Source: Aerococcus sp.
Lineage (GTDB): Bacteria > Bacillota > Bacilli > Lactobacillales > Aerococcaceae
DNA length: 64,000 nt
Direction: 5' to 3'
Assembly: GCA_030528285.1 (NCBI GenBank)
Contig: JAUMZE010000001.1
Location: 367,951-431,950, forward strand
Shown in pieces: positions 28,027 to 57,723 of this stretch. The position numbers and the translations under genes are program-made. Positions within the stretch are counted from its first letter, which is position 1. Every line of letters starts with the position of its first letter. The notes below the pieces were generated by a model that saw nothing but the letters and a program-made list of their open reading frames with translations, did no database searches and was not told the DNA's origin.

Positions 28027-28098
28027 AATCCTCAATCACTCCTTCTCCCAATCTCAAAAAACTCTCTCGTTAATTTCCCGCTTGGAGCTAAAGAAAAA

Positions 28099-39274: not shown

Positions 39275-41515
39275 TTAACGTTTATGTACGAGTACGGAAT
39301 CATTGAGTAACTGCGCATTCACGGCACAAATCACGGTGGAGAAGGACATGATCAATCCACTCAAGGCCGGTCCAATCGTAACGCCGATCGGAGCGAGCAC
39401 TCCAGCTGCGATTGGTAAGGCAATCAGGTTGTAACCCGCACCCCACCAGAGATTCTGTTTAATCTTCCGTTGTGTGGCTTTAGAGAGTGCGAGGACATTC
39501 AACGTATCATAAATATCATTCTCTACTAAGATGATATCCGCTGATTCGATCGCGACGTCGGTTCCAGCGCCAATCGCTACCCCCACTTCGGCTTGAGCGA
39601 GCGCTGGGGCATCATTAATCCCATCCCCAATCATCATCACCGCATGGCCTTCTGACTGGAGTTCTTGGATATGACTGGCCTTTTCATCAGGACGTACCTC
39701 ACTGAACACGTGGTCAATTGCCAACGTTTCCCCGACCGCTTGAGCTACACTATCCTGGTCGCCCGTCATCATGACTGCTTGAATGCCTTGTTCATGCAAT
39801 TTCTGAATGACATCTTTTGCTTCTTTACGGACTTGGTCACTAGACGCAATCAAACCGACTGCTTGCTTGTCTGCGATGACGACAACCACCGTCCGTCCTT
39901 TTTGAGAAGCTTTGGTAAGGGCCTCTGTATCCAAGTTAATCCCTGCTTGCTCCGTCGCTTTTGGGCTGAGAATTTGGATGTTCTGCCCCTGGATGGTGCC
40001 GGATAAACCTTTCCCTGTTAAGCTATTGAAGTCATCCACCGTGAGCGTCTGCATGTGTTGATCTTCGGCATAGCGCACAATTCCCTGCGCGATCGGATGT
40101 TCCGACTGACGCTCCAGACTGTAGGCGTATTGGAGAATCTGATCTTTGTCCCAATCGGCAAGTGAAACGATCTCATCCACGCCGAATGTGCCTTGTGTCA
40201 ATGTCCCCGTCTTATCGAAAACAACCGTATCAATCTTGTGCGCTTCTTCAAATGGAATTCGTTGCTGAATCAGTAACCCAGCGGACGCAGAGAGAGAGGT
40301 CGAACGCGCATTGACGAGGGGAACCGCCAACCCCATCGCATGTGGACACGCAATAACAAATGCACTCACCATGAACTGGATCGCCACATCAAAGCTGTCG
40401 AGTTTCCACCAAATCACGAGAGCCAATAAACCAACCCCCAACGCTAAATAGAAGAGGTAGCCCGCGATCCGGTCCGCGAGTCCTTGTGTTTTTGATTTTT
40501 GTGCTTGGGCATCCTGAACGAGCTGGATGACCTGATTGAGGTAGGATTCGTCTCCCGTCTTTTCAACGCTCATTGTGAGGGACCCATCACCGTTAATCGC
40601 ACCCGCAATCACTTGATCCGCTTTTTGTTTGTCAACAGGGACGGATTCCCCGGTTAATGCGGCCTCATTGACTTCGGAATGGCCAGAGATCACTTCCCCA
40701 TCGAGTGGGATTTTTTCACCGGGACGAATGAGGACCTGATCACCCGGTTTAATCTCTGTCACAGGGACCGTTTCGATGGAGCCATCTGAGGTGAGGCGAT
40801 GCGCTTCATTCGGGAGGAGTTCAGCGAGAGCTTCGAGATCTTTGGAGGCGGTCATTTCAGAACGCATCTCGATCACGTGACCAATCAACATTACGAGAAT
40901 CAATGTCACCATCTCGAAGTAATAATTATGCATTCCAAGCATTCCCTGCGATGGATCCGGCGTCAGGATGAAACTACCGACGACACTGTATGCATAGGAC
41001 GCAATGATCCCCAAACTGATCAGCATCATCATCCCCGGACGTTTCGACTGTAATTCCTGATGGCCATGTTTAAGGAAAGGCTGACCGCCATAGAAAAAGA
41101 CGATCGTGGAGAGGATAAATTCCACCCAACGTTGCCCTGTAAAATCAACCTGGTAATGAAACAGCATCATCATCATTGGTGATAGCCATGCCACCACCAA
41201 AGCGAGCGGCAGAGTGAGCCAGAAGCGCTTCTTCATATTCGCAATCATCATCATATGGTGATTTCCATGTCCATGGTGGCTGTGGTGATCCATATTCATA
41301 TGAGCCATGTCATGATCGTGATGATGCATATCGTGCTGGCCCATGTCCACATGGTGCATGTCATGGCCCTCATGATTGTGCATTGTTTGCACATGATCAT
41401 GGAAATGGTCATGATGCATGTGTTCCATATCATCATGGTGAGCCATCTGTTCATCGTGCTTATGAGACATGGCCTCCTCTTTATGTACCACATTCCCTTT
41501 GTCTGCTTTCGGCAT
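39275..41515 (-). CDS. copB: CopB-type copper-exporting P1B-ATPase with His-rich N-terminus
   Basis: A 746-residue heavy-metal P-type ATPase. The N-terminus of about 85 residues is packed with His, Met and Asp in place of CXXC metal domains. The membrane metal motif is CPH in VIACPHAMGL, marking the P1B-3 (CopB, Cu/Ag export) group. TGESVP, phosphorylation motif DKTGTLTQG, and MIGDGINDAPAL are all present. The ATG eight bases after GAGGAG is chosen; another ATG 15 codons later also has a GAGGAGG but at very short spacing. A CopY box lies upstream, so copper-induced expression is expected. Confidence 0.94.
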   Translation of the reverse strand: MPKADKGNVVHKEEAMSHKHDEQMAHHDDMEHMHHDHFHDHVQTMHNHEGHDMHHVDMGQHDMHHHDHDMAHMNMDHHSHHGHGNHHMMMIANMKKRFWLTLPLALVVAWLSPMMMMLFHYQVDFTGQRWVEFILSTIVFFYGGQPFLKHGHQELQSKRPGMMMLISLGIIASYAYSVVGSFILTPDPSQGMLGMHNYYFEMVTLILVMLIGHVIEMRSEMTASKDLEALAELLPNEAHRLTSDGSIETVPVTEIKPGDQVLIRPGEKIPLDGEVISGHSEVNEAALTGESVPVDKQKADQVIAGAINGDGSLTMSVEKTGDESYLNQVIQLVQDAQAQKSKTQGLADRIAGYLFYLALGVGLLALVIWWKLDSFDVAIQFMVSAFVIACPHAMGLAVPLVNARSTSLSASAGLLIQQRIPFEEAHKIDTVVFDKTGTLTQGTFGVDEIVSLADWDKDQILQYAYSLERQSEHPIAQGIVRYAEDQHMQTLTVDDFNSLTGKGLSGTIQGQNIQILSPKATEQAGINLDTEALTKASQKGRTVVVVIADKQAVGLIASSDQVRKEAKDVIQKLHEQGIQAVMMTGDQDSVAQAVGETLAIDHVFSEVRPDEKASHIQELQSEGHAVMMIGDGINDAPALAQAEVGVAIGAGTDVAIESADIILVENDIYDTLNVLALSKATQRKIKQNLWWGAGYNLIALPIAAGVLAPIGVTIGPALSGLIMSFSTVICAVNAQLLNDSVLVHKR

Positions 41516-41541
41516 TCGTGTCACTCCTCATTTTATTTCGT

Positions 41542-41713: not shown

Positions 41714-42262
41714 TCATTCATTTCGGTGACGGATATTGCGAGCAGGAACTCCCACTGCGGTCGCATAAGGCGGCACATCCTCAATCACGACCGCGCCTGC
41801 ACCAATCTTCGCATGGTGGCCGACATGAATGGCCCCCACTAATTGTGCATGAGCCCCGATATAGGCGTCATCATCGACTACAGGATGGCGATGTGCGTGT
41901 GGGGTATGCGTGCGCCCATCGCTCCCGAGTGTCACCCCATGGAGGATCGTTACGCGGTCACCAATCACCGCTGTTTCACCGATCACCGTTCCTACCCCAT
42001 GATCAATGAAAATATCACGCCCAATCGTCGCTTTGGGGTGAATCTCAATCCCCGTCACGCGTTTTGCATGTGCCATGATTCTTTCTGCTTGGAAATGATG
42101 GCCAGTGAGAGCGAGCTCGTGTGCACGTCGATAATAAAAGATTGCCCGCACGCCCGCATCGTACCAGAAGATTTCCGTCAGTGAGCGTCGATTGGCATCG
42201 TGCTGTTGAATGTAGGTTGCCAAATGCGCGCGTTCCAGCCACCGATTAATCATTTTAATCAT
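41714..42262 (-). CDS. cysE: Serine O-acetyltransferase
   Basis: A 182-residue left-handed beta-helix acetyltransferase that makes O-acetylserine from serine and acetyl-CoA for cysteine synthesis. Hexapeptide repeats begin at GIEIHPKATIGRDIFIDHGVG and run through GETAVIGDRVTILHGVTLG; HAHRHPVVDDDAYIGA and GVPARNI follow. It has the short N-terminal domain common in Firmicutes. Its ATG overlaps the cysK stop (TAATG), so translation is coupled. Confidence 0.95.
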   Translation of the reverse strand: MIKMINRWLERAHLATYIQQHDANRRSLTEIFWYDAGVRAIFYYRRAHELALTGHHFQAERIMAHAKRVTGIEIHPKATIGRDIFIDHGVGTVIGETAVIGDRVTILHGVTLGSDGRTHTPHAHRHPVVDDDAYIGAHAQLVGAIHVGHHAKIGAGAVVIEDVPPYATAVGVPARNIRHRNE

Positions 42263-43173
42263 TATTCAACACCGAAAATCCCAGCTGAGAGGTAACGTTC
42301 CCCGGTGTCTGGTAATACAGTCACGACTTTTTTGCCTTTGCCAAGTTCTTTGGCTACGCGCAATGCAGCAGAGACATTGGCCCCACTGGAAATACCAGCG
42401 AGAATCCCCTGTTCACTCGCTAAACGACGCATCATTGCCATCGCATCTTCATTCGTCACTGTCAAGAAATGGTCGATATATTGTTTGTCGAATAATTGTG
42501 GGACAAAATTAGCCCCGATCCCTTGAATCTTGTGGGAGCCAGCTTTCCCTTCACTGAGGAGCGGAGAGTCAGCAGGTTCCACCGCATAGGTTTGAATGTC
42601 TGTATTCTGTTCTTTGAGATATTTCGACACACCAGTCACCGTGCCACCTGTCCCAACACCTGCGACAAAGGCATCAACGTCCGGTAAGTCTTTCATAATT
42701 TCTGGACCGGTTGTTTCGTAGTGAGCTTTCACATTGGCATCATTCGTGAATTGGCCAAACAACAAAGCGCCCTTTTCTTTGGCGAGAGCTTCGGCACGAT
42801 CAGCAGCCCCTTGCATCCCTTCTGAACCAGGCGTTAGTTCCAAAGTGGCTCCATATGCACGAATCAATTGCTTGCGTTCATCACTCATGGTTTCTGGCAT
42901 CACAATGATCACATTGAGTCCCAAAGCGGCCCCTGCTGCAGAGAGACCGATACCAGTATTTCCACTCGTTTCCTCAATGATTGTGTCGCCCGGTTTCAGT
43001 TGTCCCTTCTCCATGAGGTCATTCAGGATGAATTTCACCGCACGATCCTTGATGGAGAAACTCGGGTTGTCTGCTTCAATCTTTACATAGACGTCCGCAA
43101 CGTCTTCTGGGAGACCTTGTAATTGAACGAGGGGCGTATTCCCGACAGATTCTAAGATATTATTCATTAACAT
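42262..43173 (-). CDS. cysK: Cysteine synthase (O-acetylserine thiol-lyase)
   Basis: A 303-residue fold-type II PLP enzyme that forms cysteine from O-acetylserine and sulfide. SVGNTPLVQL opens the protein, the PLP lysine is K42 in FSIKDRAVK, EETSGNTGIGL is the asparagine loop, and GVGTGGTVTGV binds phosphate. The start is the ATG seven bases after AAAGGAAG; an in-frame TTG seven codons upstream overlaps that site. It is coupled to cysE. A short upstream reading frame with a cysteine codon precedes it. Confidence 0.95.
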   Translation of the reverse strand: MLMNNILESVGNTPLVQLQGLPEDVADVYVKIEADNPSFSIKDRAVKFILNDLMEKGQLKPGDTIIEETSGNTGIGLSAAGAALGLNVIIVMPETMSDERKQLIRAYGATLELTPGSEGMQGAADRAEALAKEKGALLFGQFTNDANVKAHYETTGPEIMKDLPDVDAFVAGVGTGGTVTGVSKYLKEQNTDIQTYAVEPADSPLLSEGKAGSHKIQGIGANFVPQLFDKQYIDHFLTVTNEDAMAMMRRLASEQGILAGISSGANVSAALRVAKELGKGKKVVTVLPDTGERYLSAGIFGVE

Positions 43174-43234
43174 GGATAGGCTTCCTTTCTTCAATTCCGG
43201 GTATCGATGACTGGATCATTTGACAACAGACGCG

Positions 43235-44145: not shown

Positions 44146-44490
44146 TTAAGCGTTTGGATCTTTGATAACGGCGTCAATCTCTAAAGCAGCACCGCGAACA
44201 AGTCCCGTGACACCAAACAAACTGCGAGTTGGTTTCGTATCGGTAAAGAATGCTTCATAGGCTGCATTAATTTCGCCCACAGCCGCAACATCAGTGGTAT
44301 AAACCGAGGTCTTAATGACGTCTTCTTTGGTGATCCCCTCTGCCTTGGCAGCATCCACGATATGTTGGAGGATCAATAAGGTTTGATCCTTAATCGATGC
44401 TTTGGAGATTTCTCCATCCGCTTCGATCGGGAGCTGTCCCGAGATAAAAATAAATCCATTTTCTTTTCGATAATTTGCAAATGCAGCCAT
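44146..44490 (-). CDS. ridA: RidA-family enamine/imine deaminase
   Basis: A 114-residue trimeric protein that hydrolyses 2-aminoacrylate and similar enamines released by PLP-dependent dehydratases, protecting PLP enzymes. FISGQLPIEADGEI near residue 15, KTSVYTTDVAAVGEINAAY near 60 and the active-site arginine region GLVRGAALEIDAV near 100 are visible. AAGGAGG precedes the ATG. It lies 28 bases after the pyridoxal kinase gene and close to D-serine ammonia-lyase, an enzyme that produces exactly this enamine. Functional pairing is inferred. Confidence 0.92.
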   Translation of the reverse strand: MAAFANYRKENGFIFISGQLPIEADGEISKASIKDQTLLILQHIVDAAKAEGITKEDVIKTSVYTTDVAAVGEINAAYEAFFTDTKPTRSLFGVTGLVRGAALEIDAVIKDPNA

Positions 44491-44518
44491 CTATATAGCC
44501 TCCTTAAATTATTATTCG

Positions 44519-45373
44519 TTATTTTGTCTGTTTCAGTTGGCGCACGAACATTGAGAGGTCGCCGAGTGACTTCTCAAAGTCCAATCCATCCATCATGACA
44601 TTCTCATTCATCTGGGAGTGTTCAATCATCTCAGGCAAGGTCTTGACGGCGAGTTGGGTAGCATCTTTGAGGGAAGCGCCATTCACATGTACTCCCACCA
44701 CAATGCTGCCGAAGATATCCCCGGTCCCGTGGAAACGTCCACCGACAAACCGATCCTGGAGTAGGCCCTGTTCTTCGCTCTCATTATCATAGTAGTAGGC
44801 GCCGGTCTGTCCCTGATCGTCATAGCCAGCTCCCGTCAAAATCAGAGACTGCTGGTGACTCTTTGCTTCTTGGATGAGGGTATCCACCACATCGAGCCCG
44901 CCGATGCCTTCTTGGTACGGGAGGTCATAGATGAAGGATGCCTCGGTTTGGTTTGGCATGATCACGTCCGCCATGTCGCAGAGTGCACGCATTTCCTTCG
45001 CGTAATCTTCATTAAAGGCTGGATAGAATTCACCATTATCCGCCATGACGGGATCGAGGTAGAATTTACCCTCGCGAGAAAGCAAGGTTGGAATAGTTTC
45101 CTTCAGATAGTGGATCTGATCGATACCGCCGAGATAACCGACATAGATCGCGTCGAATTTCAGATTAAAAGAATGCCAGTGTTCCACAATCTTTGGCATT
45201 TCTTTGCTCAGATCGAGACAAGTGTAATTCTTAAATCCGGCAGTATGCGTGGATAACAGTGCGGTCGGTAGTAACACCCCTGCTAATTCCATACTGCTAA
45301 TAATCGGGAGTGCAACGGTGGTTGAGCATTTTCCGTAGCACGAGATATCATGGACAATCAGTACCTTTTTCAA
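44519..45373 (-). CDS. Pyridoxal/pyridoxamine kinase with TTG start
   Basis: A 284-residue ribokinase-fold kinase of the PdxK/PdxY/ThiD-like group, phosphorylating pyridoxal or related vitamers to feed PLP supply. Features are VHDISCYGKCST at the N-terminus, YVGYLGGIDQI, LDPVMADNGEFY near residue 115, PNQTEASFIY and the anion-hole FHGTGDIFGS near 225. I use the TTG eight bases after AAGGGAG; a longer frame from an ATG would overlap the upstream regulator gene and has no ribosome site. A phosphomethylpyrimidine kinase role is the alternative. Confidence 0.85.
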   Translation of the reverse strand: MKKVLIVHDISCYGKCSTTVALPIISSMELAGVLLPTALLSTHTAGFKNYTCLDLSKEMPKIVEHWHSFNLKFDAIYVGYLGGIDQIHYLKETIPTLLSREGKFYLDPVMADNGEFYPAFNEDYAKEMRALCDMADVIMPNQTEASFIYDLPYQEGIGGLDVVDTLIQEAKSHQQSLILTGAGYDDQGQTGAYYYDNESEEQGLLQDRFVGGRFHGTGDIFGSIVVGVHVNGASLKDATQLAVKTLPEMIEHSQMNENVMMDGLDFEKSLGDLSMFVRQLKQTK

Positions 45374-45401
45374 AGTGAGAACTCCCTTCCCTGATGAGTA
45401 C

Positions 45402-46094
45402 TTAATGCTTCTCGACGACTTCTTGAGAGATTTCATTCAAATAACGATAAACGGTCGGTTCCGAGACCCCGAGGAATTCAGCGACTTTCGGGATGGCTCC
45501 CTTCATATTGAAGATCCCGCGTGCTTTGAGTTTGCGCGTGACATTGATTTTTTCGGCTTTACTCATGGTGTGTCCTGCCTCTAATTGACTCGGATCCATG
45601 ACTTCACTGACCGAATCACTGATCACGTCGCTCATATCATTGGAGAGCACCTCCATCACCTTATTGGGGTGAGGCGTTTCCGTAACAAAATAATCCACGA
45701 CGGTCTGATCACCACCTGGGAACATCCGCATCAGGTCGCATAATTTATCAATGAACTGCGATTGGTCCGCATTGATGCAGAGGAGCCCAAGCAGTTCATC
45801 TCCATCCTTAATGTAAAAGGTCGATCCGTACACTTCATGGCCAGGTTTTGCGAGCACCTTATAGTGAATATCATAGTCATTCTCGAGGTAGTCTTTGCCT
45901 TGAATACGGTCCAAAGCATAACTGGTCAATGGAGAATCTACGGTCCGCCCACTGATGTAGCCATTCACGATTTCTTCGATGTGTGCTCCTTCGTCGTCGT
46001 CAATCACATGGAGCACGACTTCATAATTGGGTCCCAGTGTCTTTCCCAAGAATCGGGCGAGCTGTTTATATGTTTCAATGACTTGTTTATTCAT
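45402..46094 (-). CDS. YheO/DauR-like PAS-HTH transcriptional regulator
   Basis: A 230-residue regulator with an N-terminal YheO-type PAS domain (about residues 1-115; LGPNYEVVLHVIDD, GYISGRTVDSPLT, FYIKDGDELLGLLCIN) and a C-terminal helix-turn-helix (GAIPKVAEFLGVSEPTVYRYLNE). DauR, a member of this family, controls D-arginine catabolism in Pseudomonas. The ATG seven bases after AGGTGGG is used, since a GTG upstream lies in that site. It is the first gene of the regulator-pdxK-ridA unit, just downstream of dsdA. Confidence 0.87.
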   Translation of the reverse strand: MNKQVIETYKQLARFLGKTLGPNYEVVLHVIDDDEGAHIEEIVNGYISGRTVDSPLTSYALDRIQGKDYLENDYDIHYKVLAKPGHEVYGSTFYIKDGDELLGLLCINADQSQFIDKLCDLMRMFPGGDQTVVDYFVTETPHPNKVMEVLSNDMSDVISDSVSEVMDPSQLEAGHTMSKAEKINVTRKLKARGIFNMKGAIPKVAEFLGVSEPTVYRYLNEISQEVVEKH

Positions 46095-46234
46095 AATCAA
46101 TCCCACCTATGTTTATGCTTTGATTTCGGAGATTAGCGTTGTTTTCAAGAATGATTCCGCATTCATTATATCATGACTCTCCACTCTTTTTTTCAGGAAT
46201 TTCAATGCATCTCTTTGGCAACAAGATCCTCTGA

Positions 46235-46270
46235 TAAAAAATAGCTCGTTTTGCCAGCAAAACGAGCTAT
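46235..46270 (-). terminator. Terminator of the permease-dsdA unit
   Basis: A 13-bp perfect stem ATAGCTCGTTTTG/CAAAACGAGCTAT with loop CTGG and six T on the minus strand. It separates dsdA from the regulator gene. Confidence 0.93.
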
Positions 46271-46399
46271 CGAGGCCCACTACGGTTGTAATGGCGAATC
46301 ATCATTCCAAAGAACAAGGTCTCTCTCATCACACGCTATCTTATACTAATGATGGATACCCGTTCTTGTTCTCTCTAATCAAAGCACTAGTCTGTGAGA

Positions 46400-47740
46400 T
46401 TATTCAACTCCTAATTCATAGAAGGCTTTCTTGTCAGCATCAGGCACCATGCTACCACCTGTGGCCCAGGCAATATGGGTGATGTTTTCAGCTTTGGCGT
46501 TGATGCCGGTTTCTTGTAAGTATTTCTTGCCTGCTTCACTACCGAAGAGTTTCGCAGGTCCTACTAAACCAGCCACAGCAGCCGGTTCAAGTGGAATGTC
46601 TTCGGTGTCTACCAAACGAGTCAAAGCCTTCGTGGATTCTTCATCTGTCAATGTGTAACCACCGTTGAAGAAGTTCTCCATCACGATCGATACAAAGTTG
46701 GACGTCCGTGGCACTGCTAAACCGTCCATTACAGTCTTCCCGTCAATCCCGAAGTCATAAACGGATACATTGGAGTATTCTTCGGTGAGTAAGGCCAATA
46801 ACATGGATGGCACGTGGGTTGGTTCTGCGAAGAAGGCGTGGACATTGTCTCCAAAGGCATGTTTTAACCCAAATGTGATTCCACCTGGGGAGCCACCAAC
46901 ACCACATGGCAGGTAAACAAAGAGTGGATGATCATCATCAACCGTGATATTTTCTTTTGCTAGTTGTTTCTTTAAACGGCTCGCTGCGGTGGTGTAACCC
47001 AAGAAGAGATACTTGGAGTTTTCATCGTCCACAAAGTAAGAATCAGGATCTTCTTCAGCCGCTTTACGCCCAGCTGCCACTGCTTCCGTAAAGTTCGTGT
47101 CGTGTTCAATGACGTTGACCCCGTTAGAACGCAGGTAGTCTTTCTTCCATTGTTTCGCTTCAGTCGACATATGAACGATCGCGGTGAAACCTAATTTCGC
47201 AGCCATCACACCAACAGAAATTCCCAAGTTACCGGTTGTAGCAACAACGACTTTCATCTTGGAGAAGAAGTCTTGGAATTCTTTGGAACTGAATTTAGCG
47301 TAGTCATCATTAAAACCGCTGAGTAAACCATTTTCCAAAGCAACGGTTTCCGCGTGAACGAGCACTTCATAGATTGCTCCACGGGCTTTGATTGTGGCAG
47401 AAATCGGCAGTAAGTCATCACGTTTGAGGTAGAGGGTACCTGGAATATCTAAAGCGTAACGTTCAGCTTCATCCGCCTTGAAATTTTCGATTTTGGTGAT
47501 TGGGGATTCAATCAAACCATCAAGATCCACCGTATCTTCAAAGTTGGCCTTGATGAACGGACGGAAACGATCCAAACGTTCTTCAGCATCTTTGACATCC
47601 AAGTAGTTATAAGGCACTTTATCCTTTACTTCTTGGAATTTGCCTTTTTTATCATTGATCCAAAAAACAGGTTTCAGATCAGTGATCTCTTGAATGACAG
47701 GATTACTGTCAATGTATTTCTGTACATCCACTTCTGACAT
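46400..47740 (-). CDS. dsdA: D-serine ammonia-lyase
   Basis: A 446-residue fold-type II PLP enzyme that deaminates D-serine to pyruvate and ammonia through a 2-aminoacrylate intermediate. The PLP lysine is K118 in PISATIKARG, the same position as in E. coli DsdA. TTGNLGISVGVMAAKLGF, DDENSKYLFLGY, VYLPCGVGGSPGG and WATGGSMVP are conserved. The start is the ATG 11 bases after AAAGGAG. It lies 94 bases after a PTS_EIIC_2-type permease in the same unit. D-threonine could also be a substrate. Confidence 0.93.
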   Translation of the reverse strand: MSEVDVQKYIDSNPVIQEITDLKPVFWINDKKGKFQEVKDKVPYNYLDVKDAEERLDRFRPFIKANFEDTVDLDGLIESPITKIENFKADEAERYALDIPGTLYLKRDDLLPISATIKARGAIYEVLVHAETVALENGLLSGFNDDYAKFSSKEFQDFFSKMKVVVATTGNLGISVGVMAAKLGFTAIVHMSTEAKQWKKDYLRSNGVNVIEHDTNFTEAVAAGRKAAEEDPDSYFVDDENSKYLFLGYTTAASRLKKQLAKENITVDDDHPLFVYLPCGVGGSPGGITFGLKHAFGDNVHAFFAEPTHVPSMLLALLTEEYSNVSVYDFGIDGKTVMDGLAVPRTSNFVSIVMENFFNGGYTLTDEESTKALTRLVDTEDIPLEPAAVAGLVGPAKLFGSEAGKKYLQETGINAKAENITHIAWATGGSMVPDADKKAFYELGVE

Positions 47741-47834
47741 ATTTACGAACACTCCTTTATTCATTTTCTCAAATAATACCCCTAGTAAAATCATACCAGG
47801 ACATCACTTTCATTCATAGATCCAGCCTGAAATT

Positions 47835-48917
47835 TTATGCTTCCTTAGCCAACATTTCAGCCTGTTGATAATGCTCTTTGGGTTGTTTTTTGGTAGTAGT
47901 TTCACGCTCTGCCATATCTTGGGCAGTGGTGATCTTCTTGTTCTTGAAAATCAACGAGAAGACAAAGCCCACGCTCACGGCAATCACAACGCAGACCGCT
48001 GCCGCAATTAATACACGCCCTGCCGAGTTATAAGCAAACATCACGGCCAAGCCCGCAAATGGGGTCGCAGTACTCGAGGCCATATTCTGTAAGCCGAATA
48101 ATGCGATGAAGATCCCGCATAAAGCGCCTTCAACAAAATTTGCTCCATAAATAATAATAGGGTTTGCTGAGATTAAGTCAACCTGTGTTTTTGGTTCAAT
48201 AAAAACAGCCATCGTTTCGCGCTGTGTACCAAATTTCAAGCGACCAAACAGCACCATATTTAACCAAGATGAGCCCCAAATAGCCATCGTGGTCACCCCC
48301 ATTGGCACAGCCACTAAACCGAGCATGGCGGAGATGGCCATCGAACTGATTGGTGACGACCCCACCACTGCCATAATGCCACCGATCACCGCTCCCATCA
48401 CAATCGGATTACTCTGCCCCGATGCCGTGATGGTATTGCCGATCTGCTGCAGGGTGGCTTCAACGATTGGTTCACTGAGTAACCCCAGTCCTCTCGATAA
48501 CGGTGCCACAATGATAATCATGGATAAGAGATCCAATCCAGCAGGTAGTTTTTCCTGCAGATACTTAATCACGAATCCACAGAGATAACCAACAACGAGT
48601 CCAGGGATAATCCCCATTCCGTAAACCGCAGCACCACAGAGCATGGCATACCCTGGTGTGGCACCGACCGCAATCGCAACCAATGCCGCCGTTGCTGCAC
48701 CACCCATCGAACCAGCAGCACTCCCCAATTGCGATAGGAAATCAATCCCAAACACATTCCCTGCAAAGGAAGAAAGGAAAGCCTCAACCAGTAAAGTGGC
48801 ACAAGCAGCATCAGCGAAACCGCCCATTGCTTTTGCACCATAGGGAGCTTTATAGGTGAACAAGGTGAATAGGGCCAAAACAAGGATCAGTAAGCCGACA
48901 CCAAATAATAAATCCAT
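47835..48917 (-). CDS. PTS_EIIC_2-family membrane permease, candidate D-serine importer
   Basis: A 360-residue integral membrane protein with about nine or ten helices, of the PTS_EIIC_2 family (annotated as PTS subunit IIC). FTYKAPYGAKAMGGFADAA, GVTTMAIWGSSWLN, ANPIIIYGANFVEGALCG and AGLAVMFAYNSAGRVLIAA are family-like stretches. No EIIA, EIIB or Cys/His phosphorylation module is encoded nearby, so it probably does not work as a phosphotransferase. CGGAGG precedes the ATG. Sharing a transcription unit with dsdA suggests it imports D-serine or another D-amino acid; this is inference. Confidence 0.8.
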   Translation of the reverse strand: MDLLFGVGLLILVLALFTLFTYKAPYGAKAMGGFADAACATLLVEAFLSSFAGNVFGIDFLSQLGSAAGSMGGAATAALVAIAVGATPGYAMLCGAAVYGMGIIPGLVVGYLCGFVIKYLQEKLPAGLDLLSMIIIVAPLSRGLGLLSEPIVEATLQQIGNTITASGQSNPIVMGAVIGGIMAVVGSSPISSMAISAMLGLVAVPMGVTTMAIWGSSWLNMVLFGRLKFGTQRETMAVFIEPKTQVDLISANPIIIYGANFVEGALCGIFIALFGLQNMASSTATPFAGLAVMFAYNSAGRVLIAAAVCVVIAVSVGFVFSLIFKNKKITTAQDMAERETTTKKQPKEHYQQAEMLAKEA

Positions 48918-48963
48918 CTAGAAAACCTCCGTGTCAGATATTTAACTGTCAACATTATCAATT

Positions 48964-48977
48964 GATAATTATTTATC
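48964..48977. promoter_or_regulatory. Operator A, GATAA-N4-TTATC
   Basis: An inverted repeat GATAA-TTAT-TTATC about 14-27 bases after the inferred transcription start of the permease-dsdA unit; it also overlaps TTATCAATTGATAA. The position suits repression. Confidence 0.55.
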
Positions 48978-48997
48978 AGAACCACGATTCAATTATT

Positions 48998-49026
48998 AGT
49001 ATAAAAGCGCTATCACTGGATGTCAA
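48998..49026 (-). promoter_or_regulatory. Promoter of the permease-dsdA unit
   Basis: TTGACA-N17-TATACT on the minus strand, about 80 bases before the permease start codon. This is close to consensus, so the unit probably depends on repression for control. Confidence 0.88.
49002..49015 (-). promoter_or_regulatory. Candidate cre site inside the permease-dsdA promoter
   Basis: TGATAGCGCTTTTA matches 12 of 14 positions of the CcpA consensus and fills the spacer between -35 and -10, suggesting carbon catabolite repression. Confidence 0.45.
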
Positions 49027-49176
49027 TAATTTTTTATCACTTTCCGCGGATTTTTATTGCCTTTTTGATCGTAAAACCAACAATAAAAAGCATCAGTTAT
49101 TATATAAACGGTGTGATAGAAATCGATCAACACTGATATACAGGCATTTATGGCGTTTCCCATCATAAAATAAATT

Positions 49177-49190
49177 GATAATAAATTATC
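49177..49190. promoter_or_regulatory. Operator B, GATAA-N4-TTATC
   Basis: TGATAATAAATTATCA, a perfect 16-bp palindrome (49176-49191), about 190 bp upstream of the permease-dsdA promoter start. Confidence 0.5.
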
Positions 49191-49202
49191 ATATTTTGTT
49201 GA

Positions 49203-49216
49203 GATAAAATTTTATC
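49203..49216. promoter_or_regulatory. Operator C, GATAA-N4-TTATC
   Basis: GATAAAATTTTATC, a perfect 14-bp palindrome 26 bp from operator B centre to centre. Confidence 0.5.
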
Positions 49217-49254
49217 ATCCTTTGTGTGCACGCTCTTTTCTCAAAAAATGGCCA

Positions 49255-49320: not shown

Positions 49321-50796
49321 CTATAAATTAGGATCCATCTTAAAGGTAAGTTTGGAGAGTTCAGTTCCGCGCGTGATCAATTCGAATAGGAAGTCGCGCG
49401 TCTTCTTGTTGTAGTAGGTAGCAATTTCATGGTTAACCGTGGTAAGATATTCCGTCAAGGCTTCTCCTTCTAAGGTTGCTGCTTTCTCATCGACTTCGGC
49501 AATTTTACGATGCGCCCACTCGTTCAAGTCCTTCTGGTAAGCGAGGTCATCCTCCATGAATTCGGAGTAATGGCTCTCCACCACCATGGCTAAGGCTGAC
49601 TGCAACCAGTAAGCCGAATCGAGATCCAATTGCGGTGTGAAGTTGCTGTAGGACGGATCAATGTCATTCACATTGGTGTAGAACGGTACATGTGGATTGA
49701 ACGTAGGAATCCCAAAACCTAACCATTGAATCGATTCTTTGCCTGGACGCGCCTGCAGGATATGCGAGTTGGCAGTCCGAGAGAGGGAGATGGAACGATA
49801 TTTCTTGCGGTCATGTTCATCACCATTCCCTAGTGGATCATATTTCGTTTCATTGTAGTGGGATTTCAGGATGTATTGAATATCCTCTACTGAAATGAGT
49901 CGGCTGGCTTTTCTGATGAATGGGAGCTCAGCAGACTCTGGATCCTGACTTTGGTCTTCTGGATTCAAGTACCGCTGTGCAAACCAAACCCGTGGAGTGT
50001 TGTAGTGATGATCCTTCTCCGTGTCCGTCCCAAAAATATGGCGGAAGTTCCAGCGATCTGGATCTGGATTGAGGTGGTGTTCACTGACGAACTCTTGAAT
50101 GCCCTCTGCCCACATGTAGTTATCTGGATCATTGAAATCAATGTCCTGAATGGCCACCTGGTTAGCAGCCACGGCATAGCAATCATCCGGAATGCGTACA
50201 GCGACCCATTGATGACCGGTCACAATCTCCATGTACCATACATCATCTTTATCGTTGAACTGAATCCCATTACCTTCTGCAGCTCCATATTCTTTGATGA
50301 GTTCGCCGAGGAATTCAACCCCTTGCCGTGCACTCGTCACATATGGCAAAAGGAGGGTTCCGAGTGAGTCTTCCGCAATCCCGTTCTTCACATAAGGATC
50401 ATAAGCGAGCACGCGTTCATTCCCGTACACACTCTCCGTTGCGGACACCCCAACATTCAGCTCATTGAAACCATCTTCATCATTAATTCCTTCATGATTA
50501 TGGCAAAGACTGCCGCGTTTTTTATCTTCATAGTCTTTCCCACCATTTTGTGCGGGGAAGGCATTCGGCGTTGCAGTGTAGCGCATCGCTTTCTTTGGGA
50601 GGGTGACTTTCAATTGGTTGTACAAAGAAACATAGGTGCGATCCGTATTAACCTTTGCGGGGCGCACGATCGCTCGTTTCGCGTAAATGGCATTCAAACG
50701 ATCTTCATTACGAGAAATATAAGTGGCTCCATCAATCGAGGCTTTCTTGCCCACCATGATCGAGGTACATGCGGATGATTCAAATGGATCCATCAT
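49321..50796 (-). CDS. C69-family dipeptidase
   Basis: A 491-residue N-terminal-nucleophile peptidase of the PepD type found in lactic acid bacteria, cleaving a broad range of dipeptides in the cytoplasm. The nucleophile is Cys10 in SSACTSIMVGKKAS, followed by GATYISRNEDR. VGVSATESVYGN and DDVWYMEIVTGHQWVAVRIPDD are family segments. AGGAGG lies eight bases before the first of two ATGs. It is the third gene after an OPT peptide transporter and a PqqD-like gene, so it likely processes the imported peptides. Confidence 0.92.
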   Translation of the reverse strand: MMDPFESSACTSIMVGKKASIDGATYISRNEDRLNAIYAKRAIVRPAKVNTDRTYVSLYNQLKVTLPKKAMRYTATPNAFPAQNGGKDYEDKKRGSLCHNHEGINDEDGFNELNVGVSATESVYGNERVLAYDPYVKNGIAEDSLGTLLLPYVTSARQGVEFLGELIKEYGAAEGNGIQFNDKDDVWYMEIVTGHQWVAVRIPDDCYAVAANQVAIQDIDFNDPDNYMWAEGIQEFVSEHHLNPDPDRWNFRHIFGTDTEKDHHYNTPRVWFAQRYLNPEDQSQDPESAELPFIRKASRLISVEDIQYILKSHYNETKYDPLGNGDEHDRKKYRSISLSRTANSHILQARPGKESIQWLGFGIPTFNPHVPFYTNVNDIDPSYSNFTPQLDLDSAYWLQSALAMVVESHYSEFMEDDLAYQKDLNEWAHRKIAEVDEKAATLEGEALTEYLTTVNHEIATYYNKKTRDFLFELITRGTELSKLTFKMDPNL

Positions 50797-50812
50797 TGTA
50801 ACTTCCTCCTAT

Positions 50813-51166
50813 TTATTGATCATTATTTAAGCAAACCACCAAATGTTCATCTTTCTCCATTTGATTTAAGTATAGCACTAATCGTGTCATTAAATGTATA
50901 TCTATTTCTGGATATGATGCTTTTAGTGCCTCAGCAATCATCCCAACCGTACGCTTTCCATCAATCAACTGGAACACCAAACTCCCATATTCGTCGAGCG
51001 TTAATGTGCTCTGTTGGGGGATGGACCACTTCCAATATTTCCGGAAAAACTGTTGGATAGGATGATTCTGCTGGCGACAGATCGTTACAATCCCCTCTTC
51101 TACTCGATACGACACGTCGGAGCGTTTTGCGTAGATCAGGTCTTCTACCTGCGTTGGATGCTTCAT
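50813..51166 (-). CDS. PqqD-like (RRE domain) protein
   Basis: A 117-residue protein whose second half resembles PqqD, a peptide-binding RiPP recognition element: LTLDEYGSLVFQLIDGKRTVGMIAEALKASYP. The first half has the PqqD-like strand pattern SYRVEEGIVTICRQQ. No radical SAM enzyme, precursor peptide or other RiPP gene is nearby. The start is the ATG five bases after the OPT stop; an adjacent TTG is in frame. The gene sits between the OPT transporter and the C69 dipeptidase, so a role in peptide handling is plausible but unknown. Confidence 0.75.
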   Translation of the reverse strand: MKHPTQVEDLIYAKRSDVSYRVEEGIVTICRQQNHPIQQFFRKYWKWSIPQQSTLTLDEYGSLVFQLIDGKRTVGMIAEALKASYPEIDIHLMTRLVLYLNQMEKDEHLVVCLNNDQ

Positions 51167-51171
51167 CAATA

Positions 51172-53067
51172 TTATTTCCGTTTACGGACGCTGAGGAGTG
51201 GCAGGAACATCGAGAGGAGTAACACGAGCATTAATACACCTGCTGCTCCATTTGTCGCGAGCGCTCCCATTGGTGTTTTCTCCGGTAAGATCCCCGTTAC
51301 ATTCAGGATAATCCCGATCAAACCAATAATCGACCCTCCGGCAATTAAACCAGACGAGAGGGAAATCCCATTTTGAACACGTTCACCGAGAACTTCTTTG
51401 TCTTTCGTGATTAATTCAATGATCCAACGTACCGCAGACCCAATCAAGATAATTGAGGTTGTTGAAATTGGTAAGTAGAACCCAATCGCAATCGTCATGA
51501 TCGGTAAGTCTAACAACCAGAGCACTAAGGCCAAGGCAATCCCAACAATGATCATGATCCATGGTAATTCACCGGACATAATCCCTGACGTCAAGGTTGC
51601 AATCAAGTTCGCTTGTGGCAAACCAAATGGCGCATTCACACCTGTCATGGCGAGCTGTGGTTCCAATAATTTCATAATACCGACGGACACAACCACACCG
51701 ATAATCGTTGCGATCGTGAAGTATTTCATCATTTCGTTGCGCGAGCCGTCAATGAGGTAGGTCACCTTCTGCGTTTGCGTGTAGGCACCACCGACAGAAA
51801 TCGCCGTCACGATGAAGGTCCCAACGAGTAAGAGGAGGGTCACATGGGCCGTACTCTTCCAGCCAGAAACAACGAACACCAAAGTCATTACCACCAGTGA
51901 AGCAATCGTCATCCCTGAAACAGGCGCATTGGAGCAACCAATCGTTCCGGCAAAACGCGCATTTACGATGATGAACATCATAGACAAAATCAATGCGAGC
52001 ACAGCGGTCACGATCGTAATGATTAAGTTATTAGACAGGATGAATCCTGCTACAAAGGTCAAGACAGTAGAGGCCAACAGTAACGTGGACCCCAAGCGAC
52101 TAGCTGTTTCTTCACCGGATTTACGGGCACCAAGGGTTTTCTTGATGGAGGTGATAATCGTTGGAATCAATTTCAAGGCCCCGATCAAACCACCGCACAG
52201 CATCATTCCGGCCCCAATATACTTGGTGAAGTCACTCGCCACTTGTTCAACCGTCATTTGGTTCAAGATTACCGACGCGTCACTCCAGAGTGTCACCGAG
52301 TCGCCTGCCAAATGCGTGAAGTAGCTGATCAATGGGGTGATCGCAAAGTTAGCGAAGAAGGTCCCAACAAACATGGTGAGAGCGACTTTTGGCCCCACCA
52401 CAAAACCGATCCCGGCAAGCATTGGGTTGACTTCACTGGAGAATTGCCACTGGTAGGATTCACTCCCTACTAATTTGATGACACTGTTAATCCAACCGAA
52501 GACCTGGGTGGTGAGGGCGGTAATAACCCCCCCGGAACCAAATCCGATCCCCATGAATTTCAATGACTCTCCACCATATTCGCTACTGGTGAGGGCTTCT
52601 GTGATCGCTTGTGATTCTGGGAAAGCGAGCTTTCCATCTTCTTCTACAATCAGATAGTTCTCCACGAGGCTGGTTACCCCGACACTGAACAGAGCACCTA
52701 GAACACCTACTAAGAGGCCACTCCAGAAATTGATCTTTTCACCAATAATAATGATGGCTGGTAAAACATAAATCATCCCACTCGCGATGGATTCCCCACC
52801 ACTGGACATCCCCTGAATCAGGTTTTTCCCATAGATGCCTTTTTGGTTGGCGAACACGCGCACTAATCCAGAACCAATAATGGCTCCTGGGATCCCCGCA
52901 GCAACCGTCAATCCGGCTTTCATTCCGGAGTAGGCAGTACTTGCTGCGAAGATCATCGCAAGGATCGAACCGATCATTAAAATACTGAGGCTGCCACCAT
53001 GCTTGCTGACGTGCTCAGGGGTATTGGTGTGACTCGTTTTTGATGGACGATCAACACGACTACTCAT
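51172..53067 (-). CDS. OPT-family oligopeptide transporter
   Basis: A 631-residue membrane protein with about 14-16 helices of the oligopeptide transporter (OPT) superfamily, importing peptides with protons. MIFAASTAYSGMKAGLTVAAGIPGAIIG near the N-terminus and GIGFGSGGVITALTTQ are typical. The basic last residues LSVRKRK end the protein. GAAAGGA precedes the ATG. It leads the OPT-PqqD-dipeptidase unit. Metal-chelate transport, as in the YSL branch, is an alternative. Confidence 0.9.
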   Translation of the reverse strand: MSSRVDRPSKTSHTNTPEHVSKHGGSLSILMIGSILAMIFAASTAYSGMKAGLTVAAGIPGAIIGSGLVRVFANQKGIYGKNLIQGMSSGGESIASGMIYVLPAIIIIGEKINFWSGLLVGVLGALFSVGVTSLVENYLIVEEDGKLAFPESQAITEALTSSEYGGESLKFMGIGFGSGGVITALTTQVFGWINSVIKLVGSESYQWQFSSEVNPMLAGIGFVVGPKVALTMFVGTFFANFAITPLISYFTHLAGDSVTLWSDASVILNQMTVEQVASDFTKYIGAGMMLCGGLIGALKLIPTIITSIKKTLGARKSGEETASRLGSTLLLASTVLTFVAGFILSNNLIITIVTAVLALILSMMFIIVNARFAGTIGCSNAPVSGMTIASLVVMTLVFVVSGWKSTAHVTLLLLVGTFIVTAISVGGAYTQTQKVTYLIDGSRNEMMKYFTIATIIGVVVSVGIMKLLEPQLAMTGVNAPFGLPQANLIATLTSGIMSGELPWIMIIVGIALALVLWLLDLPIMTIAIGFYLPISTTSIILIGSAVRWIIELITKDKEVLGERVQNGISLSSGLIAGGSIIGLIGIILNVTGILPEKTPMGALATNGAAGVLMLVLLLSMFLPLLSVRKRK

Positions 53068-55193: not shown

Positions 55194-56600
55194 TCAATAT
55201 CCCATTGTTTTAAAGAAGCTCTGGAACCACTGTGTCACATTGGCGATCGTGTCGTTCATCAGCCGGCTAATCTTCACAAAGAAGGACACCTCACTGATGC
55301 TTTCTTTGGCTTTCATGCTCTCCTTGAGTTCATAGGAGCCATCTTTGGATAGGAGGGAATGTGCGAATGGCAGATGATAGTATTCCATATTGACCGTTTC
55401 ATCCTTCGTCAAAGGCGCACTGACTTGGAGCTGCCCTTCTGTGTCATATTGGAGCTGATCGCGATACCCAAGTTCTATCTGCGGATCGTTCAGTTGGTCT
55501 TTTGGCAGGAACAATCCCACCGAACTCCCATAATAGAGCTGGGTTGTGGTTTGGTTCCCATTCGCAACGAGAACCTGCTTGTTAGTGCCGCCCACGATCT
55601 CTCCGGTCTGATGAATCGTGTACCACTGGAGTTGACTCTCCAACGCATCGAGGAGCTGCCACATATCACTATAACGAGAGGCTTTGGTTGGATCTCCCAA
55701 AGTGACAACGAGCACTTTGCGGCCAGCAATCGTTAATTGAACGAGAAGCGAGTAACCAGACAAGTCACCCGTTCCCGTCTTGCCACCGGTGATTTCGGAA
55801 CGACCGGACGCCATCCCTGGAACCATCTCATTTTGATTCTCCATCGTGATCGTGGTTTGATCGTCTACCGCAAATGCCTTCTTGTTGGCCAGCGAACGTG
55901 TCATAATTTCCGGATAGTCATTGAGGATATTTCTCACGACTTTTAAATATCCAGCGGCGCTCAACTGATTCTCATCCGTCTCCGCATAGCCGAAGAACTG
56001 GTTATCCGTATTCACATAGTTCCCTGGTAATCCCGAAGCAGAATAGAGTTTGAAATCAGTAACCCCCGCTACTTTGATCTTCTGTGTCATTTCGTTCTTC
56101 ACAAATTGATCCTCGGTTTTTCCGACATGTTCTGCCAATGCAACCACCGCCGCATTCGCACTCTCAATCATTGCCGCGTCCATCAACTGGCTGACGGTGT
56201 ACTGATTCGTCGAGGTGATAAGCGGCACATTGGATAATCCCTCCGTCGTTGATAAGGCCGACACCTCGTCACTCACCGGTACTGTGTCCTCGAGGCTCAA
56301 TTTGCCCTGTTTGATCTCATCATAAATCACGCCTAACGTAATCACCTTGGACAGGGACGCAATCCCCTCGAGCTGGTCGGGATTGTGTTGGTAGAGCACC
56401 TGCCCTGTTGCCTGGTCGATCGCCATGGCGGATTGAAATTGGAAGTTATGATTCTGGTCAATCGTCTGAGAGAAGGCGTCAACATTCTGGTTTGTCGCTG
56501 CACTGGCACTGCCCAATGTGAACAGCCCGCAGCCCAGCATCACCAGAAACAACGACTGTAGATATCGAGCGAGTGGCCCTGGTTGTTTATCCATTCTCAT
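55194..56600 (-). CDS. D-alanyl-D-alanine carboxypeptidase (PBP5-like; DdcY-type context)
   Basis: A 468-residue serine-type carboxypeptidase that trims the terminal D-Ala of peptidoglycan stem peptides outside the membrane. A signal peptide ends near SASAA at residue 35. The catalytic motifs are SLSK at 82-85, SAN at 147-149 and KTG at 274-276. A beta-sandwich domain follows, and the C-terminal segment RLMNDTIANVTQWFQSFFK looks like the amphipathic membrane anchor of PBP5/6. Its ATG overlaps the end of the histidine kinase gene, so translation is coupled; a second ATG two codons later is also possible. This recalls the DdcRS-DdcY locus of Enterococcus faecium. Confidence 0.93.
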   Translation of the reverse strand: MRMDKQPGPLARYLQSLFLVMLGCGLFTLGSASAATNQNVDAFSQTIDQNHNFQFQSAMAIDQATGQVLYQHNPDQLEGIASLSKVITLGVIYDEIKQGKLSLEDTVPVSDEVSALSTTEGLSNVPLITSTNQYTVSQLMDAAMIESANAAVVALAEHVGKTEDQFVKNEMTQKIKVAGVTDFKLYSASGLPGNYVNTDNQFFGYAETDENQLSAAGYLKVVRNILNDYPEIMTRSLANKKAFAVDDQTTITMENQNEMVPGMASGRSEITGGKTGTGDLSGYSLLVQLTIAGRKVLVVTLGDPTKASRYSDMWQLLDALESQLQWYTIHQTGEIVGGTNKQVLVANGNQTTTQLYYGSSVGLFLPKDQLNDPQIELGYRDQLQYDTEGQLQVSAPLTKDETVNMEYYHLPFAHSLLSKDGSYELKESMKAKESISEVSFFVKISRLMNDTIANVTQWFQSFFKTMGY

Positions 56601-57723
56601 TCCCCTCCCCTTGTTGATTGGGAATCACGAAGATAAAGCGCGTGCTCTCCTCATCTGATTCCGCCCAGATTTTTCCATGATGGTTGTGAACGATATTTTC
56701 CGTAATAGCGAGTCCCAAACCGCTCCCCTTCGTCGTACGAGAGGGATCTGCCCGATAAAACCGCTGAAAGAACAATCCCAGCTGTGCGTCAGGAATCTGA
56801 ACCCCATCATTAGCGACACAGAATTCCGTTTCATGGTCCGACTGAGTGGCGGTGATTTTAATGTAGTGGCCCTCATCTCCCGCATATTTCAATGCATTCG
56901 TGATTAAATTGGAGAAGACCCGCACCATCTTTTCACTGTCGATATCAACCATCAATGGATCCTGGTTGGCCTGAATGGTGAGCGCTCGACCCGCTTCTTT
57001 CACTTGGATATCATATTCAACCTCTAATTGTTCGAGGAGACGCAGGACATTCACGCGTTCAAAATGGAACTGAACGCCCACCTGACTCACCTTCGTATAT
57101 TCAAAGAGGTCCTCCACCATGTGCTGCATCTGAATCGCTTTGTTGTAGGCAACGTCCGCATATTTCTGAGCATCCTCTTTGGTTTCAAATCGTCCACTCT
57201 GAATGAGGCCGATGTACCCAATAATGGAGGTGAGCGGCGTTCGGATGTCATGACTCATGTTCGCAATCAGTTCATCCTTAGATTTCTCGATCTGCCGCTC
57301 CTCCTCCATCGCCTGAACGGTGCTATCTACGAGGCGGTTAATGCTCTCAACGATGGGTCGCATGCTAGAGAGATGTTTGTCAGAAATATGATAGTCATAA
57401 TGTCCCTGCGAGATATAGTGCAGTTCATCGAGAATATAGCCCAGCTGAATCGTCCGCAAACGATGGGTCACCCGCCAAATGAGGATTGCCAAACTGGACG
57501 CCCCATATAGGAGGGTAAATCCAACCGCAAAATACTGTTGGAAGCGCGGATAGACCACCGCATAGTAGGGATAATTCATTGCGACATAAGGAAAGAGATG
57601 CTCAGATGCGGCCAAGAAGACGAAGAGCAACCCAAAATAACCGATCAATAAAATCGCTGAGATCGCAATAAATTCAAAGGCTAACTCAATAAAAATTCGC
57701 CAGCGCTTTTTTGCTTGTGGCAT
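56587..57723 (-). CDS. Sensor histidine kinase (VanS/DdcS-like)
   Basis: A 378-residue membrane kinase. Two helices (about residues 15-36 and 66-86) enclose a short 30-residue outer loop; a HAMP-like linker follows; the phosphoacceptor is His158 in ANMSHDIRTPLTSIIGY; the ATP-binding domain has VFSNLITNALKY and TKGSGLGLAI. The small sensor loop suggests sensing in or at the membrane, as in VanS-type kinases. It lies 49 bases after the response regulator and overlaps the carboxypeptidase gene, so all three form one operon. Confidence 0.92.
   Translation of the reverse strand: MPQAKKRWRIFIELAFEFIAISAILLIGYFGLLFVFLAASEHLFPYVAMNYPYYAVVYPRFQQYFAVGFTLLYGASSLAILIWRVTHRLRTIQLGYILDELHYISQGHYDYHISDKHLSSMRPIVESINRLVDSTVQAMEEERQIEKSKDELIANMSHDIRTPLTSIIGYIGLIQSGRFETKEDAQKYADVAYNKAIQMQHMVEDLFEYTKVSQVGVQFHFERVNVLRLLEQLEVEYDIQVKEAGRALTIQANQDPLMVDIDSEKMVRVFSNLITNALKYAGDEGHYIKITATQSDHETEFCVANDGVQIPDAQLGLFFQRFYRADPSRTTKGSGLGLAITENIVHNHHGKIWAESDEESTRFIFVIPNQQGEGNENG

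What the first reader, a model, noticed from the sequence alone, without database searches (positions are those of the whole stretch)
44146..49216. Candidate D-serine (D-amino acid) utilisation module with built-in enamine detoxification
A PTS_EIIC_2 permease and D-serine ammonia-lyase share a unit, followed on the same strand by a YheO/DauR-like regulator, a pyridoxal kinase and RidA. Seen: gene order, spacing, motifs, terminators. Known: DsdA releases 2-aminoacrylate, RidA removes it, PLP is the DsdA cofactor, and DauR of this regulator family controls D-arginine catabolism. Inferred: the orphan EIIC protein imports D-serine, and the five genes form one pathway, probably fed by host or peptidoglycan D-amino acids. 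I know of no description of this combination with an EIIC_2-type importer.
Basis: partly seen in the sequence, partly recalled or inferred. Interest (0 to 1): 0.72.

Follow-up and report, generated by a model that had tools for sequence, protein, structure and literature searches.

The report
Orphan EIIC as likely serine permease
An Aerococcus-like bacterium carries a conserved D-serine breakdown locus whose importer belongs to a protein family labelled as a sugar-transport part or toxin regulator, and gene-neighbour evidence suggests that this branch of the family really moves the amino acid serine.

Summary
The five genes are real and most of the locus is conserved. In 100 surveyed genomes (own included) a low-scoring EIIC lies beside D-serine ammonia-lyase in 8, with a Rid protein in 8 of 8 and a YheO-type regulator near the EIIC in 7 of 8. 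This EIIC is not a typical PTS_EIIC_2; it belongs to a separate branch, one member of which is annotated 'regulatory protein PfoR'. Branch members also precede L-serine ammonia-lyase (SdaAB-SdaAA): in 2 genomes of this family, 1 distant genome, 14 of 19 examined proteins of a Staphylococcus-like clade, and a Melissococcus plasmid with seryl-tRNA synthetase. Best reading: a serine permease, supplying D-serine to DsdA here. A palindrome recurs before the permease genes; its four best sites in 64 kb all lie at 48962-49218. I propose it as the regulator's operator. Many branch members stand alone. Transport is inferred, not shown; the structure prediction was uninformative.

The parts
47835..48917 (-). 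PfoR-like EIIC_2 membrane protein, proposed serine permease
   Evidence: PF13303 204 bits; branch profile 546 bits, the window being in its training set, against at most 26 bits for 30 typical PTS_EIIC_2 proteins; neighbours in relatives
46400..47794 (-). DsdA, D-serine ammonia-lyase (probable true start 47740)
   Evidence: TIGR02035 555 bits over cut-off; long match to solved D-serine dehydratase 3ss7, 428 bits
46240..46271 (-). rho-independent terminator after dsdA
   Evidence: 14-pair stem, T-rich tail
45402..46106 (-). YheO-type regulator (PAS_6 + HTH_22)
   Evidence: Pfam 98 and 68 bits; a YheO-type gene is within 3.5 kb of 13 of the 17 low-scoring EIIC proteins of the relatives survey, own included
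44519..45436 (-). pyridoxal/pyridoxamine kinase-like gene (probable start near 45373)
   Evidence: NF005491 252 bits; nearest solved relatives 3mbh and 3h74
44146..44490 (-). Rid family protein, proposed 2-aminoacrylate deaminase
   Evidence: PF01042 81 bits; only PF01042 match in the held genome (the TAG it reports lies just before the start codon); Rid close to DsdA in 8 of 8 loci with EIIC and 1 of 21 without
48998..49026 (-). promoter TTGACA-17-TATACT of EIIC-dsdA; the spacer holds a cre-like GTGATAGCGCTTTTAT (49001-49016; CcpA consensus recalled)
49023..49040 (.). candidate operator overlapping the -35 box
   Evidence: 12.4 bits with a matrix trained without the two Aerococcus regions
48962..48979 (.). 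candidate operator between promoter and gene
   Evidence: 14.2 bits; holds an exact pattern match
49175..49192 (.). candidate upstream operator, exact pattern match on both strands
   Evidence: 14.4 bits, best of the 64 kb window
49201..49218 (.). candidate upstream operator (GATAAAATTTTATC palindrome)
   Evidence: 11.3 bits, fourth best of the window

Best explanation
The locus takes up and degrades D-serine. The EIIC gene encodes a secondary permease for serine that works without PTS phosphorylation. DsdA converts the imported D-serine to pyruvate and ammonia through 2-aminoacrylate, which the Rid protein helps to hydrolyse. A YheO-type regulator binds repeated TGATAATNNATTATCA-like palindromes in front of EIIC-dsdA and controls them; a cre-like site suggests carbon repression too. 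The kinase helps supply pyridoxal phosphate in this genus. Shown: genes, order, conservation, motif. Inferred: substrate, transport without phosphorylation, operator binding, roles of Rid protein and kinase.
For: Branch EIIC genes stand beside serine enzymes in several lineages: DsdA in 8 genomes and SdaAB-SdaAA in 2 of the first survey; SdaAB-SdaAA in 14 of 19 examined proteins of a Staphylococcus-like clade and in L144; serS-'PfoR'-sdaAB-alpha chain on a Melissococcus plasmid; serS between EIIC and dsdA in L071. What these neighbours share is serine. A gene whose best solved match is isoleucine 2-epimerase, 570 bits for the L081 copy, accompanies two EIIC copies and the regulator in G001 and G002. 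The held genome has no GntP/DsdX-type permease and no SDH_alpha match; its three AA_permease matches reach 92 bits at best. Motif: 13 of 14 permease upstream regions reach p<=0.02 in left-out tests, 0 of 5 control regions do; with a matrix trained without the Aerococcus regions the top four sites of the window lie before EIIC. PAS_6 genes occur in 12 of 13 genomes with a low-scoring EIIC and in 6 of the other 87.
Against: No transport or growth data. 30 of 38 DsdA genomes lack a linked branch EIIC, among them 5 of the 10 DsdA genomes of this genus. Many branch members have no serine gene near: 5 of 19 in the Staphylococcus-like clade (L158, L175, L176, L180, L181, nested with the linked ones), the sisters L145 and L146 of L144, L083-L085 and other lone copies; in all 25 of the 41 branch proteins fetched outside the first survey. 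No YheO-type gene is near any of those 41. The genome is 85% complete, so absences are weak, and the AA_permease proteins could carry serine. The Rid protein misses the TIGR00004 cut-off and lacks the N-terminal GPY stretch of 9 of the 12 aligned rows. The motif seed was chosen by eye from these same regions, and the loci are related. Motif result L082 was p 0.093.
Confidence: 0.7

Rival explanations
1. The EIIC-like protein is a membrane sensor or regulator (the old PfoR idea), or exports a product such as pyruvate or excess amino acid, rather than importing serine.
For: A branch member is annotated regulatory protein PfoR; a paper gives the same name to EF_0097 (PMC11135667 passage; its sequence was not compared). 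25 of the 41 branch proteins fetched outside the first survey have no serine ammonia-lyase near.
Against: A review says pfoR mutation did not change pfoA expression (PMC4448169 passages, citing Awad and Rood 2002). The protein is an EIIC-type membrane domain with no other domain found. A separate regulator with a DNA-binding domain is in the locus.
Confidence: 0.14
2. The EIIC works in a genuine PTS with IIA/IIB encoded elsewhere and imports a sugar or related compound; linkage to serine enzymes reflects shared carbon regulation.
For: EIIC family; a cre-like site in the promoter.
Against: No IIA/IIB among the nine window proteins scanned nor among 30 relatives' proteins scanned with Pfam; other neighbours and the rest of the genome were not scanned. 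The recurrent partners are serine enzymes and seryl-tRNA synthetase.
Confidence: 0.07
3. The permease carries another small amino acid (alanine, threonine, glycine, cysteine) and DsdA acts on D-threonine or on internally made D-serine.
For: Two copies with a racemase-like gene in G001/G002 and no DsdA there; cysE-cysK next door; DsdA often stands without any branch EIIC.
Against: SdaAB-SdaAA and serS partners point to serine.
Confidence: 0.09

Closest known systems
E. coli dsdCXA (D-serine utilisation; recalled)
   Same: D-serine ammonia-lyase with a permease and a regulator
   Different: Permease there is GntP-type DsdX and regulator LysR-type DsdC (recalled); here an EIIC-type protein and a YheO-type regulator, plus a Rid protein. 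No GntP match in this genome.
E. coli YhaO/YhaJ D-serine uptake system (PMC4699771, abstract and section list seen)
   Same: D-serine transporter and regulator pair
   Different: As I recall, YhaO is an SdaC-type amino acid transporter and YhaJ a LysR regulator; no comparison was run.
PfoR / 'regulatory protein PfoR' (PTS_EIIC_2 relatives)
   Same: Same branch: the Melissococcus protein annotated PfoR scores 362 bits with the branch profile and is 38% identical to the window protein
   Different: PfoR was named as a toxin-gene regulator; here the neighbours speak for serine transport. The C. perfringens protein itself was not fetched or compared.
serS - PfoR - sdaAB - sdaAA cluster, Melissococcus plutonius plasmid AP012283
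   Same: Branch EIIC next to a serine ammonia-lyase
   Different: L-serine enzyme in place of DsdA; no YheO-type gene found there
DauR / YheO regulators (function of DauR recalled)
   Same: PAS_6 plus HTH_22 domains
   Different: DauR controls D-arginine genes in Pseudomonas (recalled); ligand and operator here unknown, a palindrome is proposed

Membership tests
D-serine ammonia-lyase (DsdA) | Score above TIGR02035 cut-off | tested here: met
   555 against 368 bits, profile 3-430 of 431; 3ss7 alignment
dsdCXA-type locus | GntP-type DsdX permease | tested here: not met
   No GntP match in the held genome, 85% complete
dsdCXA-type locus | LysR-type DsdC regulator in the locus | tested here: not met
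   Regulator in the locus is PAS_6/HTH_22
PTS permease (EII complex) | EIIC domain | tested here: met
   PF13303 204 bits; profile-profile link to typical PTS_EIIC_2 over 225 columns, 96% probability
PTS permease (EII complex) | Cognate IIA and IIB domains | tested here: inconclusive
   None among nine window proteins scanned; the rest of the genome was not tested
PTS permease (EII complex) | Phosphorylation of substrate | not testable with these tools
   needs a transport assay
PfoR-like EIIC branch | High score with the branch profile | tested here: met
   546 bits (the window was in the training set); branch members 288-580; typical EIIC_2 at most 26 bits
YheO/DauR regulators | PAS_6 plus HTH_22 | tested here: met
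   98 and 68 bits
RidA (enamine/imine deaminase) | PF01042 domain | tested here: met
   81 bits
RidA (enamine/imine deaminase) | TIGR00004 Rid subfamily cut-off | tested here: not met
   81 against 106 bits
RidA (enamine/imine deaminase) | Catalytic arginine before the conserved [ST] (residue role recalled) | tested here: met
   PTRS aligned with PARS, PSRS, PIRS, PIRT or PART of the other rows; the N-terminal GPY stretch is absent
Pyridoxal/pyridoxamine kinase | NF005491 cut-off | tested here: met
   252 against 231 bits

The most novel reading that the evidence does not exclude
The whole PfoR-like branch of orphan EIIC proteins, found in 58 of 398 surveyed genomes of the class and named sugar PTS subunits or toxin regulators, is a family of serine permeases: a PTS-type membrane domain that moves an amino acid without phosphorylation, paired in different lineages with DsdA, SdaAB-SdaAA, seryl-tRNA synthetase or a racemase.
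Probability: 0.45. Interest if true: 0.72.

Novelty: new variant of a known kind. Interest (0 to 1): 0.55.

Why it matters
It proposes a function for a membrane family whose published name (regulator of perfringolysin) was, according to a review, contradicted by a mutant, and whose automatic name (PTS sugar IIC) is probably wrong. It gives a direct test: serine uptake. It also offers a second, unrelated way of building a D-serine utilisation locus in Gram-positive bacteria, with a proposed regulator and operator. If true, it shows an EIIC domain used for an amino acid.

Tried and rejected
AlphaFold2 of the EIIC with a two-row alignment (window and L031) gave mean pLDDT 35; no fold search was made with it. 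Sequence searches of solved structures with the EIIC and with its 14-row profile found nothing up to E 10.

I considered that the EIIC belongs to the main PTS_EIIC_2 group and rejected it: of 30 typical proteins fetched, three scored 25-26 bits with the branch profile and 27 had no match at E 1e-6. The own genome's typical copy (L050) has a ketopantoate reductase-like neighbour. A profile-profile comparison still links the two groups.

I considered one long five-gene operon and rejected it because of the terminator at 46271-46240. One-mismatch sites of the operator pattern occur at four further places of the genome. All four were fetched but only one was looked at, G000:C12:109345: it lies between genes that I read by eye from the translations as phosphate-binding protein and peptide chain release factor, no serine gene.

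The scan of genome contigs with the EIIC found one relative, as it reaches close kin only. Rows dropped: in trees, L031 as a copy of L075, and in the second tree also L115-L118, L123, L130 and L133 as copies of longer loci. L165 gave no EIIC frame at its contig end and is not in the counts. Both trees are quick ones with SH-aLRT only, a midpoint root for drawing and a long-branch warning. Loci outside the first survey were chosen by me, partly by score, so their counts are not a random sample: of the class survey's 35 proteins with 289-334 bits I fetched 19. Ten of the 39 DsdA proteins over the cut-off were not examined with wide surroundings; none of their genomes has a linked low-scoring EIIC by the coordinates.

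Papers. Search listings only: (0 papers; 0; 1; 13; 1; 12 held, 11 listed; 3,896 held, 20 listed; 5 held, 4 listed; 25 held, 20 listed), 63 (74 held, 20 listed). In these listings I saw no paper that links PfoR or this EIIC with serine transport or serine dehydratase; the term also catches PFOR, another enzyme, and unlisted rows were not seen. Passages were read in PMC6952197, PMC4982691, PMC4448169, PMC13227979 and PMC11135667; PMC4699771 abstract and section list. Awad and Rood 2002 was not held and is cited through PMC4448169.
Full report
What is there. The window lies in a 1.62 Mb, 85% complete genome. The only relative found in the named genome collection is an Aerococcus sp. MAG whose EIIC is 86% identical and whose gene order is the same (L031; maps). 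Reading on the minus strand from 49320, the order is: palindromic sites and a promoter; the EIIC gene (48917-47835); dsdA (47794-46400, probable start 47740); a 14-pair terminator (46271-46240); the YheO-type regulator (46106-45402); a pyridoxal kinase-like gene (45436-44519); and a Rid family gene (44490-44146). Family scores are, promoter and terminator.

Conservation of the D-serine locus. In the relatives survey of 100 genomes, own included, 38 have DsdA over the cut-off, 60 have PTS_EIIC_2 over the cut-off, and 18 have the PAS_6 domain of the regulator. The EIIC matches fall in two ranges: seventeen near full-length proteins in 13 genomes score 162 to 220 bits, and the remaining longer matches score 229 or more. 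I fetched the surroundings of the 16 outside the window and mapped them. Eight of the 17 lie beside DsdA, in 8 genomes of two families (f1, f2). Two lie beside SdaAB-SdaAA. Four, as two pairs in G001 and G002, lie beside the regulator and a class III aminotransferase-fold protein; the L081 one has isoleucine 2-epimerase as best solved match, 570 bits. Three (L083, L084, L085) have none of these.

Partners. I examined 29 of the 39 DsdA proteins over the cut-off with wide surroundings. A Rid gene is close to DsdA in 8 of 8 loci with EIIC and in 1 of 21 without (Fisher p 2e-6; the loci are related, so this is a guide). A YheO-type gene is close to the EIIC in 7 of 8 and to DsdA in 6 of 8, against 1 of 21 without EIIC. 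The kinase is close in the window, L075 and L078, all one genus, plus a shorter, 30% identical kinase in L072. In L071 a seryl-tRNA synthetase gene lies between EIIC and dsdA; in L078 a protein of the same cluster lies close to dsdA. Against universality: 30 of 38 DsdA genomes lack a linked EIIC of this branch, 5 of the 10 in this genus included.

The EIIC branch. Of 30 typical PTS_EIIC_2 proteins, three reach 25-26 bits with a profile of the branch and the rest have no match, whereas members score 288 to 580. A profile-profile comparison still links the two groups, 96% probability over 225 columns. A survey of 398 genomes of the class found the branch in 58 at E 1e-60, own included, and one of 398 genomes of the phylum in 6 at E 1e-50. 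I fetched chosen surroundings. SdaAB-SdaAA follow the EIIC in 14 of 19 examined proteins of a Staphylococcus-like clade (all 14 examined that score 296-332 bits; none of the five that score 288-292, which nest with them on the tree) and in L144, but not in its sisters L145 and L146. Of 41 branch proteins outside the first survey, Melissococcus included, 16 have SdaAA near and 25 do not, and none has a YheO-type gene near. A Melissococcus plutonius plasmid record carries serS, 'regulatory protein PfoR', sdaAB and the alpha chain in a row, and a second copy that my stretch cuts. On the midpoint-rooted tree the serine-linked proteins lie on both sides of the first split, so the linkage is either old or was gained more than once.

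Regulation. Fourteen regions in front of branch EIIC operons, from 12 genomes that all hold a PAS_6 gene, share an AT-rich palindrome close to TGATAATNNATTATCA. In left-out tests 13 of 14 reach p of 0.02 or less against dinucleotide shuffles; L082 is at 0.093. None of five control regions does, the lowest being 0.106. The seed was picked by eye from these regions, so the tests are not wholly independent. With a matrix trained without the two Aerococcus regions, the four best places in the 64 kb window are 49175, 48962, 49023 and 49201, all before EIIC, at 14.4 to 11.3 bits against 8.9 for the next. The pattern TGATAAWNWATTATCA matches exactly at only two places of the held genome, both of these; with one mismatch there are four further places. 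One site overlaps the -35 box. The regulator link is by co-occurrence: 12 of 13 genomes with a low-scoring EIIC have PAS_6, against 6 of the other 87. L076, whose genome keeps its PAS_6 gene elsewhere (L077), has the motif too. Binding is not shown.

Why serine. The partners that recur are DsdA, SdaAB-SdaAA and SerS, whose common substrate is serine; Rid-type proteins act on the enamine that such lyases release (established knowledge, recalled). The genome has no GntP match and no SDH_alpha match, so here D-serine is the likely substrate. It has three AA_permease proteins, the best at 92 bits, which cannot be excluded as carriers.

PfoR. A review reports that pfoR was suspected of regulating pfoA and that its mutation had no effect (PMC4448169 passages). 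A proteomics paper lists EF_0097 of Enterococcus faecalis as regulatory protein pfoR among membrane proteins (PMC11135667 passages). The serine reading would give the family a real job. I saw no paper that says so in the search listings named under Tried and rejected.

Verdict. The transporter idea is strengthened and widened; the single-operon and kinase parts are weakened. It is a new variant of a known kind (D-serine utilisation), with a possible new function for an orphan EIIC family. All transport claims are inference.

Noticed in passing
41714-43194: Serine acetyltransferase (EpsC/CysE type) and cysteine synthase A genes on the same strand just beyond MsrA, so further serine-using genes lie near.
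   Followed up: no
49321-53067: C69 dipeptidase, a small PqqD-like protein and an OPT oligopeptide transporter directly upstream, also in L031: possibly a peptide uptake unit with a PqqD-like partner of unknown role.
   Followed up: no
23278-28035: 1585-aa ORF with about 8.5 copies of a 267-base repeat, looks like a repetitive surface protein; long antisense ORF 23782-26109 is probably a by-product.
   Followed up: partly
55194-57723: DD-carboxypeptidase PBP3-like gene overlapping a VanS-like histidine kinase gene, both below family cut-offs.
   Followed up: no
L074:9484-10401: VanY-like D,D-carboxypeptidase relative (116 bits, below cut-off) next to the EIIC-dsdA-Rid unit of G009; could be a source of D-amino acids.
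   Followed up: no
L050:297-2502: Typical PTS_EIIC_2 gene of the own genome sits next to a ketopantoate reductase-like gene; several other typical members have a 300-330 aa gene beside them, not annotated here.
   Followed up: no
L155:7301-8299: A branch EIIC of a Staphylococcus-like genome has a leukocidin-family neighbour, recalling the pfoR position beside a pore-former gene; not pursued.
   Followed up: no
39275-41524: P-type metal ATPase with a very His/Met-rich N-terminus (read by eye), probably copper or silver export.
   Followed up: no
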